From Diaphorobacter sp. HDW4B (GTDB taxonomy: Bacteria; Pseudomonadota; Gammaproteobacteria; Burkholderiales; Burkholderiaceae_C), in the NCBI RefSeq assembly GCF_011305535.1, contig NZ_CP049905.1, positions 3,966,001-4,030,000 on the forward strand: 64,000 nucleotides of DNA, in the 5' to 3' direction. The position numbers and the translations under genes were made by a program. Below the pieces are notes generated by a model that saw only the letters and a program-made list of their open reading frames with translations, did no database searches and was not told where the DNA came from. The stretch's first letter is position 1. Each line of letters opens with the position of its first letter. Shown here in pieces: positions 12,920-63,140 of the stretch.

Positions 12920-13381
12920 TCAGTCGGCCAGTTCGGCGATCAGTTCGATTTCCACGCAGGCACCCAGCGGGATCTGCGCGACGCCGAAGGCGCTGCGTGC
13001 GTGCGCGCCCTTTTCGGGGCCGAAGACCTGGGCCATCAGCTCGCTGGCACCGTTGGTGACGATGTGCTGTTCGGTGAAGTCGCCGGTGGAGTTCACCAGG
13101 CTCATCAGCTTGACGATGCGCTTGATGCGGTTGAGGTCGCCCGTCGCAGCATGCAGCGTGCCCAGCAGATCGACGGCCACGGCGCGTGCGGCCTGCTTGC
13201 CTTCATCGGTGGTCACGTTCTTGCCGAGCTGACCGGCCCAGACGGCACCGTCCTTGCGCGCGATATGGCCGGAGAGGAACACCAGCTTGCCGGTCTGCAC
13301 GAACGGCACATAGGCAGCCGCAGGCGTGGCCACGGGAGGCAGGGTGATGTTGAGTTCCTTGAGTTTGTCGTAAACGCTCAT
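12920..13381 (-). CDS. RidA (YjgF/YER057c/UK114) family protein, cytoplasmic
   Basis: This 153-residue protein is of the longer RidA subgroup, with VQTGKLVFLSGHIARKDG and a C-terminal GACVEIELIAEL strand. RidA proteins hydrolyse enamine/imine intermediates released by PLP enzymes, but this subgroup often lacks the catalytic arginine. In the matching segment here (AHARSAFGVAQIPLGACVEIE) an Arg is present. No signal sequence is seen, unlike the second RidA gene at 59640. Upstream of pdxY, so a shared PLP-related role is possible. Confidence 0.75.
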   Translation of the reverse strand: MSVYDKLKELNITLPPVATPAAAYVPFVQTGKLVFLSGHIARKDGAVWAGQLGKNVTTDEGKQAARAVAVDLLGTLHAATGDLNRIKRIVKLMSLVNSTGDFTEQHIVTNGASELMAQVFGPEKGAHARSAFGVAQIPLGACVEIELIAELAD

Positions 13382-57036: not shown

Positions 57037-57711
57037 TCAGGGCTGCGGCTGGAGGTCGGCGTAATCGACGGCATATTTGACGAGTGCGGCACGGCCGTCG
57101 ATGCGCAGTTTGCGGCGCAGGTGCAGGCGGTGGGTCTCCACCGTGCGGATCGACGAGCCCATGAGCTCGGCAATCTCCTTGTTGGAGCGGCCCTGAGCGA
57201 GCAGTTGCAGCACGGTGTTTTCGCGCGGTGTGAGCGTGCGATGGGCGCGCGTGCCGTTGCCATCGCCATTGGTGGCTGCGGGCTGCAGCCATTGCTCCAG
57301 ACCGGGACTCAGAAACGTGTTTCCCGCGTGGACTCGTTCGATGGCCTGCACGAGTTGCTGCGCGGGCGCGTCCTTGAGGACATAGCCGCTGGCGCCGAGC
57401 AGCATCGCGCGCCGTACATATTCCTCTTCCTGATGCATGGACAGCACCAGCACGCGAATCAGCGGATAGCGTTCGCGAAATGTCGCGGTGAGCTGGATGC
57501 CGCTGGCTCCCGGCATTCGGATGTCGGTGACCACGATGTCCGGTTGCACTTCTTCAGCGAGCGCGAAGGCTTCATTGGCGCAGCCCGCCTCGGCGACGAC
57601 GCGGATATGCGGTGTGGCGTCGAGGCGCATTCGCACTCCGTCGCGCACCAGTGGGTGGTCATCGACCAGCAGCACACGAATGGGTAGATGGGGGAGGCGT
57701 GCGTTGTTCAT
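57037..57711 (-). CDS. NarL/FixJ-family response regulator
   Basis: 224 residues: receiver (VLLVDDHPLVRDGVRMRL, phospho-Asp in IVVTDIRMPGASG, Lys in GYVLKDAPAQ) and LuxR-type helix-turn-helix (LTPRENTVLQLLAQGRSNKEIAELM). Its ATG overlaps the Cache-kinase stop (ATGA), so the two are one operon. It most likely acts on the divergent ridA/PLP-enzyme pair, whose upstream region has repeated TACGCA/TGCGTA words. Confidence 0.9.
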   Translation of the reverse strand: MNNARLPHLPIRVLLVDDHPLVRDGVRMRLDATPHIRVVAEAGCANEAFALAEEVQPDIVVTDIRMPGASGIQLTATFRERYPLIRVLVLSMHQEEEYVRRAMLLGASGYVLKDAPAQQLVQAIERVHAGNTFLSPGLEQWLQPAATNGDGNGTRAHRTLTPRENTVLQLLAQGRSNKEIAELMGSSIRTVETHRLHLRRKLRIDGRAALVKYAVDYADLQPQP

Positions 57712-59138
57712 GCGGGTGCGTAACTGGAGTCGAATCGGGAATGGGGGAGCGCGGCGTCATCATCGGCTTCGGCATGCAGGGGCAGGGTGGCGAGGATGCC
57801 TGTGCCTTGTTTTGTGGCGCTGATCGAGAAGCGGCCTTGCAAGGCTTCAATGCGCTCGCGCATGTTGCGCAGACCAATGCCACGGTTGCCATCGGTAAGC
57901 ACTCCGTGGATGTCGAAGCCTTGTCCGTTGTCCTGAACGATCAGCGTGACGCTGCGTGGATCGAACTGCAGCCGGATCAGCACCGCGCTGGCATTGGCAT
58001 GGGTACACGCGTTCTTCACCGCTTCCTGGGCTACGCGGTAGAGCGCGGTGGCGTGCGTGTTGGGGATCGCATGGGCTTCGCCGCACTGCTCGAATTGCAC
58101 GATGGTCGCGTCACCGCTTTCGCACATCTGTTCGCTCAAAAGCGTCAGCGCAGCGGGCAGGCCCAGATCGTCGAGCAGGGCGGGGCGCAAGCCGTGCGAG
58201 ACGCGGCGGATTTCCAGCAGGGCATCGTTGAGGCGAGCAAGACCTTGATCCAGCGCCTTGCTGCTGGGAGGCGCCAAGTCCGGGGCTGTCACATGCGGCT
58301 GCTGCAACTGTGCCGTTTCGAGCAGGAACTTCGACGACACCAGCATTTGCACCACGCCATCGTGCAGGTCGCGCGCCACGCGGGCGCGCTCTTCCTCCTG
58401 CGAATGGACCACGCGCTGCGCCAGTCGCCGGAGCTTGGCGCTGGAGATGCGATGGTCCTTCAGGTTGAGCAGCACGCCGGCTGCGGCAATCGACACCATG
58501 CACAGCGCTGCGATCAGATAGATGCGCTGCTGCGTGGCCGCGATGTTGTTCTTGGCGTGCTCGTCGATGCGTGCCAACGTTTCCTGCACATCGTCCAGAT
58601 ACAGGCCGGTGCCGACCACCCAGTTCCAGCCCGGCACCTGCAGCACGTAGCCCAGTTTGGGAGCCAGTATCCGGGAGGATGGTTTGTGCCATTCGTAGCG
58701 CACGAGGCCCCCGCCCGACTGGGCCTTGTCGAGGATGAGCCGTGCCTGTGTCTGGCCGCTGGGTGAGTTGGGATCGCACAGATCGACATTGGCAACCGCC
58801 ATCTGCTCGGGGTTCACAAGCAATTGGCCTTGCTGGTCGTAGAGAAAAAAGTAGCCATCGTCGCCAAATTTCATTCGCGTGATGATGTGGATGGCCTTTT
58901 TCCGCAGTTCGTCGTCGCTCGCGTCAGGGGAGTCGGCAATGCGCTCGATGGTGCTGCGCGCCAGTTCCACGTAATGGCGCAGTTCCGTTTCCTTGCTGTG
59001 CAGATAGGCCGCTTCGACGAGTTTGCGCTCTTCGTTTGCCAGCGACAGGGTTTGATGGCGCGCGGTGACACCCATGCAGATCAGTGCCACGCCCACAGGA
59101 ATGGCTGCCATCAATATCAGTTTGAGGCGTAGCTGCAT
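57708..59138 (-). CDS. Cache-domain sensor histidine kinase
   Basis: 476 residues: a membrane helix (about 8-27), a periplasmic Cache domain (about 30-195) with DDGYFFLYDQQGQLLVNP and WNWVVGTGLYLDDV, a second helix (about 204-225), HisKA_3 with ARDLHDGVVQML and a HATPase domain (AVKNACTHA, DNGQGFDI). Cache domains bind small ligands such as amino acids or organic acids in the periplasm. The divergent genes encode exported enzymes, so the kinase may sense their substrate or product. Confidence 0.9.
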   Translation of the reverse strand: MQLRLKLILMAAIPVGVALICMGVTARHQTLSLANEERKLVEAAYLHSKETELRHYVELARSTIERIADSPDASDDELRKKAIHIITRMKFGDDGYFFLYDQQGQLLVNPEQMAVANVDLCDPNSPSGQTQARLILDKAQSGGGLVRYEWHKPSSRILAPKLGYVLQVPGWNWVVGTGLYLDDVQETLARIDEHAKNNIAATQQRIYLIAALCMVSIAAAGVLLNLKDHRISSAKLRRLAQRVVHSQEEERARVARDLHDGVVQMLVSSKFLLETAQLQQPHVTAPDLAPPSSKALDQGLARLNDALLEIRRVSHGLRPALLDDLGLPAALTLLSEQMCESGDATIVQFEQCGEAHAIPNTHATALYRVAQEAVKNACTHANASAVLIRLQFDPRSVTLIVQDNGQGFDIHGVLTDGNRGIGLRNMRERIEALQGRFSISATKQGTGILATLPLHAEADDDAALPHSRFDSSYAPA

Positions 59139-59440: not shown

Positions 59441-59480
59441 TGCGTGGTAGTACGCAGATCGATTTGCGTAGTACTGCGTA
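59441..59480. promoter_or_regulatory. Repeated TACGCA/TGCGTA words in the divergent gap
   Basis: TGCGTG (59441), TACGCA (59451-59456), TGCGTA (59465-59470) and TGCGTA (59475-59480) cluster in 40 bp, about 160-200 bp before ridA. The spacing suits paired binding of a NarL-type regulator. The rest of the 501 bp gap (59139-59639) is AT-rich and has no gene. Confidence 0.45.
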
Positions 59481-59639
59481 AGGGAAAAATCAGCACTGAA
59501 ATCGGATTTGTGTTTCTAGAATTCATTCGTGCGATGGGTCGGTTTGAAATCGAATTGAAAGGCTGATTCAACTGGCTTGTCCGGGTTTTTGTGTCAATGG
59601 CATTTTCATTTTGATGATGACTTCAAGAGGAGTTGTGCG

Positions 59640-60107
59640 ATGAACAGAAATACATGTCGTTTCACCATGGTTTTCGGAAGCGTTGCATGCGCTTTGGCGC
59701 TCGCGGGCTGCGCGGCTCCCGGGGGAAAGCGGGAGGTGTTGTCTACCAACCAGATCTACCCGGCCATCGGGCCGTATTCGCAGATGGTCTCGCATGGCAG
59801 CACGATCTACTTTTCGGGCGTGTTGCCGCTCAATGCGGCGGGCAACGCGGTGGCGGGTGCGACGATCGAGGAGCAGACACGCGCGGTGCTGGACTTCATC
59901 GGTGCCAAGCTCAAGAGTCAGGGGCTCGGCTATGAGGATGTGCTTGCGACCACGGTCTACATGAAGGACCTCAACGAGTTCGCCGCCATGAACAAGGTGT
60001 ATGGCGAGTACTTCAAGTCTGCTGCACCGGCGCGGGCAACCGTGGAGGTGGCCCGTCTGCCGCGTGACGTGAAGATCGAGATTGCCGCCATCGTCGGTCG
60101 CCGCTGA
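59640..60107 (+). CDS. RidA-family enamine/imine deaminase with lipoprotein signal
   Basis: RidA hydrolyses reactive enamines such as 2-aminoacrylate to keto acids and ammonia. This 155-residue protein carries a lipoprotein signal with lipobox LAGC (C24 as lipid site, Ala at +2, which would favour the outer membrane). The mature domain keeps the residues that define active RidA: Y46 in IGPYS, G60 in FSGVLP, R132 in APARATVEV and E147 in KIEI, matching Y17, G31, R105 and E120 of E. coli RidA. The next gene, 51 bp on, encodes an exported PLP enzyme. A secreted RidA is unusual. Confidence 0.85.
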   Translation: MNRNTCRFTMVFGSVACALALAGCAAPGGKREVLSTNQIYPAIGPYSQMVSHGSTIYFSGVLPLNAAGNAVAGATIEEQTRAVLDFIGAKLKSQGLGYEDVLATTVYMKDLNEFAAMNKVYGEYFKSAAPARATVEVARLPRDVKIEIAAIVGRR

Positions 60108-60158
60108 TCTCCGATCTCTTGTGCATCCGGATTCTTTCCACCTTTCACGGAGGCTCTC

Positions 60159-61628
60159 ATGAACCAAACCATCACTCCATCGGCGGGCGACGTCGAACTC
60201 TGCGCGCAGGAAACCCTGGACACCAGTCGCTGGACATCCAAGCGACGCGACTTTCTGCGCATGCTGGGCTATGGCGCAGGCGCGGCGACGCTTGGCCCCA
60301 TGCTTGCCGCATGCGGCAGCAGCAATGCGCAATCGACTTCGGAGGCGTTGCGCGCGCAGCTTGTGCAGGACGCAGGGTTCTGGAGCGGTGTGCAGGGCAT
60401 GTTCGTGCTCAATCTGGCCAAGACCTTCATGAACATCGGCACGGCGGGCTCGATGCCGAGCACGGTGCTCGACGTGTTCGCAACGCAGAACCGCGCCAAG
60501 GCGGTGGATTGCCTCAACGGCTATTCCAACTTGCTCGATCTGCGCAAGGCGGCTGCGCCGGGTTTCGGCGTCGATGCGGACGAGCTGGCCTTTTCGGCCA
60601 ATACGTCGTCCGGCATGTGCCACGCCATTCTGGGAATCGACTGGGCGCCGGGTGACGTGGTGGTGACGACCAACCACGAGCATGGAGGAGGCGACACACC
60701 GCTCAAGATCGCCACGGATCGCTATGGCATCGAGGTCTCGCGCATCGCCATGCCGGTGGGCAACAACCAGACCGCAGCCACGTATGTGAGCCTGTTCGAT
60801 GAGCGCATTCGGGCACTCAAGGCGCAGGGCAAGCGCGTGCGCGCGATGATGTGGTCATCTCCCACCTACAAGACCGGCACCATGCTGCCGATCGCCGATC
60901 TGATGACGGTGGTGAAGGCGCATCAACTGATCAGCATTGTGGACGGAGCGCACTTGCCGGGGATGATGGCCTACAACTACGGCGATCTGGGTATGGACTT
61001 CATGTCCGGTGCCGGTCACAAGTGGCAATGCGGGCCGGGCTCCACGGGCATTCTCATTGTGCGCAACAAGATTCGCGCCTCCAATCCGCTACCGTTGCCC
61101 AAGTGGTTTCCGATCCATACGAGCTCGTATTCGCAACTGGAACGCACGACCAATGGAACGGAAACCTATGACATCGCCGCGACCATCACCAGTTGCGGCA
61201 GCGTGCACACGCCGATGTTCATGTCGCTGGTGCAGGCCTGCAAGATGTGGGACGAGATCGGGCGCAAGAAGATCGAGACCTATGACATCACGCTCGCTTC
61301 CTATTTGAAGGAAAAGGTGGCGGAGCGCTGGGGTGTCGACGCACTGTATTCGCCCAAGGATGATCCGAAGCTGCTCTCGGCACTGACCTCGTTCAATCCG
61401 TTCCAGAACAAGGCGGATGTGATGAACAGCCAGAAATCATCAAGTTTCGTGGCGCGTCTGGCGGCGGAGTATCCGCAAGGTTTCGTGATCCGCAATTCCA
61501 ACTTCCCGGTGATTGGTGCTGCGGCGGAGCACTACGGTGTGCGCGTTTCCACGCACCTGTGGCATGACGCGACTGACGTGGATCTGCTGGTCGAAGCGAT
61601 GTGGGATCTCTCCAAGAAGATGGCCTGA
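60159..61628 (+). CDS. Exported class V PLP enzyme (isopenicillin N epimerase/PvdN-like)
   Basis: 489 residues. The N-terminus has a Tat motif (SKRRDFLRML, RR at 29-30) and ends in a lipobox LAAC (C52), so it is probably a folded, lipid-anchored periplasmic protein. The catalytic part is a fold type I class V aminotransferase: D262 in VDGAHLPG binds the pyridine nitrogen and K288 in GAGHKWQCGPGS should hold PLP. Tat-exported relatives include PvdN of Pseudomonas pyoverdine maturation. No siderophore genes are visible here. Reaction unknown. Co-directional with lipoprotein RidA. Confidence 0.82.
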   Translation: MNQTITPSAGDVELCAQETLDTSRWTSKRRDFLRMLGYGAGAATLGPMLAACGSSNAQSTSEALRAQLVQDAGFWSGVQGMFVLNLAKTFMNIGTAGSMPSTVLDVFATQNRAKAVDCLNGYSNLLDLRKAAAPGFGVDADELAFSANTSSGMCHAILGIDWAPGDVVVTTNHEHGGGDTPLKIATDRYGIEVSRIAMPVGNNQTAATYVSLFDERIRALKAQGKRVRAMMWSSPTYKTGTMLPIADLMTVVKAHQLISIVDGAHLPGMMAYNYGDLGMDFMSGAGHKWQCGPGSTGILIVRNKIRASNPLPLPKWFPIHTSSYSQLERTTNGTETYDIAATITSCGSVHTPMFMSLVQACKMWDEIGRKKIETYDITLASYLKEKVAERWGVDALYSPKDDPKLLSALTSFNPFQNKADVMNSQKSSSFVARLAAEYPQGFVIRNSNFPVIGAAAEHYGVRVSTHLWHDATDVDLLVEAMWDLSKKMA

Positions 61629-61733: not shown

Positions 61734-61778
61734 CGGTAGGCTTGGGGTGGGTGAGCCTTCGCTCCGTACAATTTGCGC

Positions 61779-63140
61779 ATGTCTTCACATGCCGCCTCCA
61801 TCCCCCTGGACGCCGTCGCTGCAGCCGCTGCGCCGGACTTTCGCCGTGATCCTCGCGGCTTTTTGCTTTCGCTGTATGCGGTGGCGGTGCGTCGCGCGCA
61901 GCCCTTGCATACTCTGAAAGACTATCTGCCCCAACCGCCGACGGGCCGTACGTTGGTGATCGGCGCGGGCAAGGCGGGCGCTGCAATGGCGCAGGCGGTC
62001 GAGGCGCTGTGGCCCGAAGATGCTCCCATGTCGGGGCTGGTGGTCACGCGCTATGGGCATATTCCGGAGCGTCCGCAGGGCTTGAAGCAGCGCATCGAGA
62101 TTGTGGAGGCTGCGCATCCTGTGCCGGATGCGGCGGGCATGGCGGCTGCGGAGCGGATCTTGCAACTGGTGCAAGGTTTGACGGCGGATGATCTGGTGCT
62201 GTGCCTGATCTCTGGCGGTGGTTCGGCTTTGCTGACCTTGCCTGCCGACGGCCTTACGCTGGCCGACAAGCAGGCCATCAACAAGGCATTGCTGGAGAGC
62301 GGGGCCAACATTGCCGAGATGAACTGCGTGCGCAAGCATCTTTCGCGCATCAAGGGCGGGCGACTGGCGGCAGCGTGCGCGCCCGCGCAAGTGGTGACGC
62401 TCACCATCAGCGACGTGCCGGGCGACGATCCCGCCATCATCGCGAGCGGCCCGACAGTGCCGGATGCAACGACTTGCGCCGATGCGCTGGCGATTCTCAA
62501 GCGCTACCGGATTTCTGTGCCAGCCTCGGTGATGGCGCAACTGGAGCGCGGCGAGCTGGAAACGCCCAAGCCCGGCGATGCGGTGTTTGCCGGGCAGACC
62601 GTGCATCTCATCGCCACGCCGCAGCAGTCGCTTGTTGCCGCTGCCGAGGCCGCGCGTGCTGCAGGTCTGTCCGCGCATGTTCTGAGCGATGAGATCGAGG
62701 GCGAGTCACGTGAGGTCGGGCGCGTGCATGCGGCCTTGGCCCGAGCCGCCGCCAAGCATGGCGAGCCGTTTGCAAGGCCTTGCGTGATTCTGAGCGGTGG
62801 CGAGACCACGGTGACGATTCGCCCGCAACCCGCAGGCACGCCCAAGGGTCGGGGCGGTCGGGCGGGGGAATTCTGCTTGGGACTCGCGCAGGCGCTGCAA
62901 TCGCAATCCGATGTGTGGGCGCTGGCGGCCGACACCGATGGCATCGACGGCGTGGAGGACAACGCGGGCGCTTTCGTCACGCCGGACAGTTTGTCTCGCG
63001 CGGAAGCGGCCGGTCGCAAGGTGGCCGATGCGCTCGATCGCAACGACGCTTATGGCTATTTCGAGGCCATCGGCGACCTGCTGGTGACCGGGCCGACCAA
63101 CACCAACGTCAACGACTTCCGCGCCTTGCTGGTGCTCTGA
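61779..63140 (+). CDS. Glycerate 2-kinase / TtuD family (DUF4147-MOFRL)
   Basis: 453 residues with the N-terminal DUF4147 Rossmann-like domain (TLVIGAGKAGAAMAQAVE, SGGGSALLTLPADG, NCVRKHLSRIKGGRLA) and C-terminal MOFRL domain (VILSGGETTVTI, LAADTDGIDGVEDNAGA). These enzymes phosphorylate D-glycerate; old annotations call them hydroxypyruvate reductase (TtuD). The shorter ATG at 61779 (MSSHAAS) is preferred to 61773. It follows the stem-loop and may be a separate unit. Confidence 0.88.
   Translation: MSSHAASIPLDAVAAAAAPDFRRDPRGFLLSLYAVAVRRAQPLHTLKDYLPQPPTGRTLVIGAGKAGAAMAQAVEALWPEDAPMSGLVVTRYGHIPERPQGLKQRIEIVEAAHPVPDAAGMAAAERILQLVQGLTADDLVLCLISGGGSALLTLPADGLTLADKQAINKALLESGANIAEMNCVRKHLSRIKGGRLAAACAPAQVVTLTISDVPGDDPAIIASGPTVPDATTCADALAILKRYRISVPASVMAQLERGELETPKPGDAVFAGQTVHLIATPQQSLVAAAEAARAAGLSAHVLSDEIEGESREVGRVHAALARAAAKHGEPFARPCVILSGGETTVTIRPQPAGTPKGRGGRAGEFCLGLAQALQSQSDVWALAADTDGIDGVEDNAGAFVTPDSLSRAEAAGRKVADALDRNDAYGYFEAIGDLLVTGPTNTNVNDFRALLVL

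What the first reader, a model, noticed from the sequence alone, without database searches (positions are those of the whole stretch)
59640..61628. An exported PLP enzyme paired with a lipoprotein RidA: imine handling outside the cytoplasm
Seen: ridA has a clean lipobox (C24) and keeps all catalytic residues (Y46, G60, R132, E147). The next gene has a Tat motif (RR29-30), a lipobox (C52) and an intact class V PLP site (D262, K288). Known: RidA clears reactive enamines/imines released by PLP enzymes, normally in the cytoplasm; PvdN is a Tat-exported class V PLP enzyme. Inference: the two act together at the cell envelope, on an amino acid or peptide substrate, with RidA removing a reactive intermediate. 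I know of no described two-gene system of this form.
Basis: partly seen in the sequence, partly recalled or inferred. Interest (0 to 1): 0.8.

Follow-up and report, generated by a model that had tools for sequence, protein, structure and literature searches.

The report
Exported RidA with exported PLP enzyme
This bacterium and many relatives export two enzymes together, one that probably breaks down an amino acid using vitamin B6 and one (RidA) that clears the reactive by-product, under a dedicated sensor; RidA was known as a safeguard inside cells, so a matched set outside the inner membrane is new.

Summary
RidA (window 59640-60107) has a Sec lipoprotein signal and intact catalytic residues. 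The class V PLP enzyme (60159-61628) has a twin-arginine signal, a lipobox and an intact PLP site. It is not chance: RidA lies beside this enzyme, on the same strand, in 43 of 43 evaluable related loci, and both carry export signals wherever N-termini can be read. Two RidA lineages, both gene orders and an alphaproteobacterial pair only 32% identical keep the pairing. Best explanation: a Tat-exported C-S/beta-lyase-like enzyme releases an enamine/imine (probably 2-aminoacrylate) at the envelope; RidA hydrolyses it to pyruvate and ammonia, protecting an enzyme whose PLP cannot be replaced there; the kinase controls the operon. Export and pairing are well supported. Reaction, substrate and sensor ligand are inferred. 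The enzyme is related to PvdN, C-DES and Egt2 but meets no tested family cut-off, and lacks the cysteine-desulfurase Cys. New variant of a known kind.

The parts
59640..60107 (+). ridA: exported lipoprotein RidA (155 aa)
   Evidence: TIGR00004 129.6 bits over cut-off 106.25; catalytic residues conserved 38/38
59640..59711 (+). Sec lipoprotein signal of RidA, lipobox LAGC, acylated Cys24; +2 residue is Ala
   Evidence: sequence; lipobox or Sec signal kept in the related RidAs
60159..61628 (+). class V (Aminotran_5) PLP enzyme, 489 aa, KWQCGPG signature
   Evidence: Pfam PF00266; AlphaFold pLDDT 86.8; D262/K288/H175/R445/R462 mapped
60159..60314 (+). twin-arginine signal (SKRRDFLR, R29-R30) with lipobox LAAC, Cys52; +2 residue is Gly
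   Evidence: TIGR01409 over cut-off; twin Arg in every locus whose N-terminus is held
59465..59486 (+). putative operator: direct repeat TGCGTA (59465-59470 and 59475-59480, 10-bp period) followed by AGGGAA
   Evidence: only copy in the genome at up to 1 mismatch; in 32/34 loci with the kinase and regulator, 0/10 without
57708..59138 (-). sensor histidine kinase: two transmembrane helices, periplasmic sCache_2 (58566-58997), HisKA_3, HATPase_c
   Evidence: Pfam; hydropathy peaks near residues 2-27 and 204-227; conserved neighbour
57037..57711 (-). LuxR/NarL-type response regulator
   Evidence: Response_reg + GerE; conserved neighbour

Best explanation
A regulated two-enzyme module that works outside the cytoplasm. 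(1) The PLP enzyme folds around PLP in the cytoplasm and goes through Tat as a holoenzyme; RidA, which needs no cofactor, goes through Sec. In the Diaphorobacter group both are then lipid-anchored, probably facing the periplasm. (2) The PLP enzyme binds an alpha-amino acid through the conserved carboxylate-binding arginines (R445, R462) and, like its relatives C-DES and Egt2, performs a beta-elimination (probably at C-S) that releases 2-aminoacrylate. (3) RidA hydrolyses the enamine/imine to pyruvate and ammonium. This matters most in the periplasm, where an enzyme whose PLP has been attacked by 2-aminoacrylate cannot be refilled. (4) The sCache_2 kinase senses a small carboxylate or amino-carboxylate of this chemistry, and its LuxR-type partner switches the operon through the TGCGTA repeat. 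Shown here by sequence: export signals, intact catalytic sites, conserved pairing, linkage to the kinase, regulator and operator. Inferred: that both proteins are exported and anchored in the cell, the beta-elimination, the identity of the intermediate, sensor ligand, regulator-operator binding. My separate odds: export of both 0.93; functional pairing 0.9; an enamine/imine intermediate handled by RidA 0.75; beta-elimination giving 2-aminoacrylate 0.5; control of the operon by this kinase and regulator 0.8.
For: Pairing: RidA adjacent and same-strand in 43/43 evaluable loci. In the PLP tree the clade with B-type RidA downstream (96/95 support) is nested within lineages with A-type RidA upstream, while A-type and B-type RidA are separate clades: the partner gene was replaced or relocated and the pairing kept. 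L054/L087 has A-type RidA downstream of a 34%-identical PLP enzyme. Palleronia, an alphaproteobacterium, has a Sec-signal Rid directly before a Tat PLP enzyme. Export: twin Arg in all PLP N-termini held; lipobox or Sec signal in RidA. Chemistry: top PDB and fold relatives are C-DES, Egt2, LolT and PvdN; stacking His175, Asp262, Lys288, Arg445 and Arg462 are kept; RidA residues intact. The exported RidA is the only Rid of this genome above the TIGR00004 cut-off, and in the relatives surveyed the 8 genomes with the strong PLP matches are exactly those with the adjacent exported RidA. Precedents: RidA genes cluster with PLP enzymes that make 2-aminoacrylate (PMC4433059); PvdN crosses Tat with PLP bound (PMC6206403). 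Regulation: operator single in the genome, co-occurs with kinase and regulator 32/34 vs 0/10; the sensor is closest to 2qhk/4exo, 4k08 and 5g4y, which bind pyruvate, acetate and propionate (PMC5062169).
Against: No biochemical data. Tat-exported homologues in Streptomyces (47% identical) and in Gammaproteobacteria (35-38%) have no RidA next door, so the enzyme can work without an adjacent RidA in other lineages. PvdN, the characterised exported relative, decarboxylates rather than eliminates. The sensor pocket keeps Tyr, Tyr, Tyr, Trp and Lys but has Asp/Asn/Glu where PscD has His103, so its ligand may be an amino acid rather than pyruvate. The 43 loci share ancestry; the Fisher p value (2.7e-8) is not corrected for that.
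Confidence: 0.6

Rival explanations
1. PvdN-like tailoring: the PLP enzyme modifies the free alpha-amino acid end of a secreted peptide or siderophore in the periplasm, and RidA hydrolyses an imine on that larger molecule.
For: PvdN is the only characterised Tat-exported class V relative; structural match 5i90 (TMq 0.78, the lowest rmsd of the listed leading hits, 3.6 A); shared HEH and DGxH motifs; the gammaproteobacterial homologue scores 126 bits to the PvdN model.
Against: 73 bits against a PvdN cut-off of 650; no peptide-synthetase or siderophore genes next door in the loci inspected; PvdN works without an adjacent RidA as far as I know; the RidA pocket is small.
Confidence: 0.17
2. PLP-dependent amino-acid oxidase: the enzyme oxidises an amino acid with O2 to an imine, and RidA hydrolyses the imine to keto acid and ammonia.
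For: RidA proteins accelerate imine hydrolysis for amino-acid dehydrogenases (PMC5619798, abstract); periplasm is oxygenated.
Against: Known PLP oxidases, from my own knowledge, belong mainly to the aspartate-aminotransferase (class I/II) group; nearest class V relatives are lyases and PvdN.
Confidence: 0.12
3. Signal-processing pair: the enzymes destroy or make a periplasmic signal read by the neighbouring sensor, and metabolism is secondary.
For: Kinase and regulator conserved in 34 of 44 loci; distant exported homologues sit beside SBP_bac_3 and GGDEF-EAL genes (also a similar arrangement in Vibrio).
Against: The pair exists without the kinase and regulator in Massilia, Noviherbaspirillum and Rubrivivax-type loci; simple substrate induction explains the linkage.
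Confidence: 0.08
4. Adjacency without joint function: RidA serves general imine clearance in the envelope and the PLP enzyme is unrelated.
For: RidA is broadly specific; some homologous PLP enzymes lack adjacent RidA.
Against: 43/43 adjacency, two gene orders and two RidA lineages; a shared single-copy operator upstream.
Confidence: 0.03

Closest known systems
PvdN (Pseudomonas, periplasmic pyoverdine tailoring)
   Same: Tat-exported class V PLP enzyme; HEH and DGxH motifs; fold match 5i90
   Different: 73 bits vs cut-off 650; no siderophore genes seen nearby; paired with RidA and a sensor kinase; lipoprotein in this group
C-DES, cystine C-S lyase (Synechocystis)
   Same: Best PDB sequence hit (E 7e-19; 8e-30 by profile); PLP site and stacking His
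   Different: C-DES is, to my knowledge, cytoplasmic and not paired with RidA; about 20% identity; substrate here untested
Egt2/EgtE, hercynylcysteine sulfoxide C-S lyase
   Same: Top Foldseek hit (5uts, TM 0.77); same fold and Schiff-base motif
   Different: Catalytic Tyr134 of Egt2 is His175 here; 25.6 bits vs cut-off 400; exported
Cytoplasmic RidA with 2-aminoacrylate-producing PLP enzymes
   Same: Gene clustering of RidA with PLP enzymes (PMC4433059); RidA catalytic residues intact
   Different: Both partners exported, the PLP enzyme by Tat; dedicated sensor and operator
C2/C3-carboxylate sCache sensors (PscD, 4EXO, 4K08)
   Same: Sensor domain homologous; Tyr96, Tyr100, Tyr148, Trp150 and Lys161 kept in 30/30
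   Different: His103 of PscD is Asp/Asn/Glu here; fused to a histidine kinase, not a chemoreceptor

Membership tests
RidA subfamily (TIGR00004) | score over the curated cut-off | tested here: met
   129.6 bits vs 106.25
RidA subfamily (TIGR00004) | catalytic Tyr17, Gly31, Arg105, Glu120 | tested here: met
   Y46, G60, R132, E147; 38/38 conserved
RidA subfamily (TIGR00004) | enamine/imine deaminase activity | not testable with these tools
   needs a biochemical assay
Aminotran_5 (class V PLP enzymes) | profile match, Asp and Schiff-base Lys | tested here: met
   68.9 bits vs 21.5; D262, K288
PvdN (NF051467) | equivalog cut-off 650 bits | tested here: not met
   73.3 bits
PvdN (NF051467) | Tat export | tested here: met
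   TIGR01409 17.2 bits vs 16.7; RR in all N-termini held; by motif only
Cysteine desulfurase (SufS/IscS/CsdA) | catalytic Cys of the RTGHHC loop | tested here: not met
   loop is absent, R445-N then SNFP
Cysteine desulfurase (SufS/IscS/CsdA) | curated cut-off | tested here: not met
   sufS 52 vs 475 bits
EgtE/Egt2 | equivalog cut-off 400 bits | tested here: not met
   25.6 bits
EgtE/Egt2 | catalytic Tyr134 of Egt2 | tested here: not met
   His175 at that position
C-DES type C-S lyase | conserved class V active site with stacking His and substrate-carboxylate Arg | tested here: inconclusive
   His175 aligns with the His of C-DES; R445 and R462 mapped on SufS-type sequences, not on C-DES; substrate pocket not compared
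C-DES type C-S lyase | beta-elimination of cyst(e)ine | not testable with these tools
   assay needed
C2/C3-carboxylate sCache_2 sensor | PscD ligand residues Tyr90, His103, Tyr143, Lys156 | tested here: not met
   3 of 4 kept; His103 is Asp/Asn/Glu

The most novel reading that the evidence does not exclude
A dedicated extracytoplasmic RidA system: a sensor-controlled envelope module that runs an aminoacrylate-releasing PLP reaction outside the inner membrane, with its own RidA protecting an enzyme whose PLP cannot be replaced there. It would show that 2-aminoacrylate damage is a selective problem in the cell envelope as well as in the cytoplasm.
Probability: 0.5. Interest if true: 0.85.

Novelty: new variant of a known kind. 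Interest (0 to 1): 0.72.

Why it matters
RidA is one of the most widespread proteins of life and is described as a guard of cytoplasmic, mitochondrial or plastid PLP enzymes. A conserved RidA exported together with a Tat-exported PLP enzyme implies reactive enamine/imine chemistry in the bacterial envelope, where holoenzymes cannot be repaired with fresh PLP. It also gives a small genetic system (two enzymes, one sensor pair, one operator) in which the question of what RidA protects can be tested with few confounders, and it flags a wide, uncharacterised family of Tat-exported PLP enzymes (KWQCGPG signature) from Burkholderiales to Streptomyces. My literature searches of the open library found no described case.

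Tried and rejected
Filing the enzyme as PvdN, EgtE or cysteine desulfurase was rejected on cut-offs and residues. A plain greedy gene caller gave antisense noise in this GC-rich DNA and was replaced by a codon-usage caller. I expected the exported RidA to be present with every Tat PLP homologue; Streptomyces and gammaproteobacterial homologues lack an adjacent one. The 3' neighbour (glycerate-2-kinase-like, 61773-63140) and the 5' HIT and alpha/beta-hydrolase genes were considered as pathway partners, but they are conserved only in close Diaphorobacter. Whether RidA-A and RidA-B share one exported ancestor could not be settled: with only cytosolic, A and B groups the RidA tree cannot be rooted between them; a search for the nearest relatives of RidA-B returned general RidAs at about 50% identity. 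Generic promoter and terminator scans were no better than shuffles. Papers on PvdN in Achromobacter and on RidA in chitin oxidation held nothing on exported RidA.

Full report
What is there. The window lies in a 6.2-Mb genome near Diaphorobacter caeni. ridA (59640-60107) and a class V PLP gene (60159-61628) form a probable operon 51 bp apart, each with a good Shine-Dalgarno sequence. RidA has a Sec lipoprotein signal (LAGC24) and the RidA catalytic residues. The PLP enzyme has KRRDFL, a hydrophobic stretch, LAAC52, and an intact PLP site. The residue after each acylated Cys is Ala or Gly, not the Asp that keeps lipoproteins in the inner membrane of E. coli (my knowledge), so the outer membrane is the likelier anchor.

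Not chance. I collected relatives from 84,980 species genomes and from sampled relatives, and took wider flanks for some. In 43 of 43 loci with both sides available, a RidA lies next to the PLP gene on the same strand. The PLP enzyme carries twin arginine in every case where its N-terminus is held. RidA carries a lipobox in most loci and a plain Sec signal in L027, L028, L029 and L175 (the motif search is crude, e.g. at L038, where the lipobox is better read as TSGC). In Noviherbaspirillum the PLP enzyme has a Tat signal but no lipobox, so export is the constant and the lipid anchor varies.

The pairing survives rearrangement. Diaphorobacter, Delftia, Acidovorax, Massilia, Noviherbaspirillum and Rubrivivax-type loci have A-type RidA upstream; Cupriavidus, Cognatazoarcus, Paracidovorax wautersii and one Acidovorax have B-type RidA, about 50% identical, downstream. 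In the PLP tree the B-type group is one clade (96/95) nested inside the A-type lineages, whereas A-type and B-type RidA form separate clades. One locus (L054/L087) has A-type RidA downstream of a PLP enzyme only 34% identical. In Palleronia sp. LCG004, an alphaproteobacterium, a Rid protein with a Sec signal is followed after about 50 bp by a Tat PLP enzyme 32.5% identical to the window's. Replacement and relocation of a partner with the pairing kept is what functional coupling predicts.

A regulator belongs to it. Next to the pair lie a histidine kinase with a periplasmic sCache_2 domain between two transmembrane helices and a LuxR-type response regulator: divergent in the Diaphorobacter group, co-directional in Cupriavidus. 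Upstream of the structural genes I found a repeated TGCGTA motif, TGCGTAGTACTGCGTAAGGGAA, with a 10-bp period. It occurs in 32 of 34 loci with both regulators and 0 of 10 without (Fisher p 2.7e-8, not corrected for ancestry), and only once in this whole genome at up to one mismatch. A dedicated regulator site is the simplest reading; binding itself is untested.

What the enzyme is. Sequence searches give cystine C-S lyase C-DES first, then Egt2 and PvdN. The AlphaFold model (pLDDT 86.8, pTM 0.89) matches Egt2, LolT, PvdN, C-DES and SufS. The stacking His175, Asp262, Lys288 and two arginines (R445, R462) matching the SufS-family arginines are kept, but the cysteine-desulfurase Cys loop is missing. 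No curated family cut-off except the general class V domain is met. The enzyme belongs to a wider group with the signature KWQCGPG, mostly Tat-exported, that includes Gammaproteobacteria and Streptomyces plasmids without an adjacent RidA and cytoplasmic-looking members (L105-L108).

How it probably works. RidA proteins hydrolyse 2-aminoacrylate and related imines, and RidA genes are known to cluster with PLP enzymes that make 2-aminoacrylate (PMC4433059). C-DES and Egt2 are beta-eliminating C-S lyases (my knowledge of the families). PvdN is carried through Tat with PLP already bound (PMC6206403). Putting these together: the holoenzyme is exported by Tat, RidA by Sec; the enzyme eliminates a beta-substituent from an amino acid, releasing 2-aminoacrylate; RidA turns it into pyruvate and ammonium before it attacks PLP. 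In the periplasm a damaged holoenzyme cannot be given new PLP, which would explain why RidA is kept at its side. The sensor domain is closest to chemoreceptor Cache domains solved with pyruvate, acetate or propionate (PMC5062169) and keeps Tyr96, Tyr100, Tyr148, Trp150 and Lys161 in 30/30 orthologues, but has Asp, Asn or Glu in place of the carboxylate-binding His103. So pyruvate is possible, and a small amino acid is at least as likely.

Genome context of RidA. This genome has 11 Rid-family genes, but only the exported one passes the TIGR00004 cut-off. Among the surveyed relatives, the eight genomes with strong PLP matches (G000, G001, G003, G005, G009, G015, G039, G040) all have the adjacent exported RidA above that cut-off.

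Limits. No signal predictor, no biochemistry, no coordinates of the model for pocket analysis; relatives found by exact peptide patterns favour close kin, and loci are not independent. Substrate, reaction and ligand are inference. The most cautious statement that the data support is: a conserved, regulated, exported RidA-PLP enzyme pair.

Noticed in passing
L110:1544-6483, L111:1631-6359, L174:6097-9492: Tat-exported homologues without RidA in Gammaproteobacteria sit beside an exported SBP_bac_3 protein and a GGDEF-EAL protein (domains tested in L110 and L111; L174, Vibrio, looks the same by sequence), another sensory linkage of the same enzyme family.
   Followed up: partly
L173:7809-9242: Streptomyces plasmids carry a Tat-signal homologue 47% identical to the window enzyme with no RidA adjacent.
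   Followed up: partly
L045:4001-5396; L047:4001-4494: In Paracidovorax konjaci the PLP gene is split by a frameshift, and in P. cattleyae only fragments remain without RidA at hand: the module seems to be decaying in some Paracidovorax.
   Followed up: no
window 12932-13324 (-): A second, more distant Rid-family gene (55 bits to PF01042) lies in the same window.
   Followed up: no
L105-L108: A cytoplasmic-looking branch of the KWQCGPG family (about 30% identical) without export signal in one genus of another family of the order.
   Followed up: no
window 59451-59470: An extra inverted half-site, TACGCA-N8-TGCGTA, overlaps the operator repeat in the window.
   Followed up: partly
genome G000, whole: The exported RidA is the only Rid protein of this genome above the TIGR00004 cut-off; cytoplasmic 2-aminoacrylate must be handled by other Rid families or be little produced.
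   Followed up: partly
L176:3636-6107: Haloferax plasmids hold a shorter class V homologue directly after an M20 peptidase gene; no Rid nearby.
   Followed up: no
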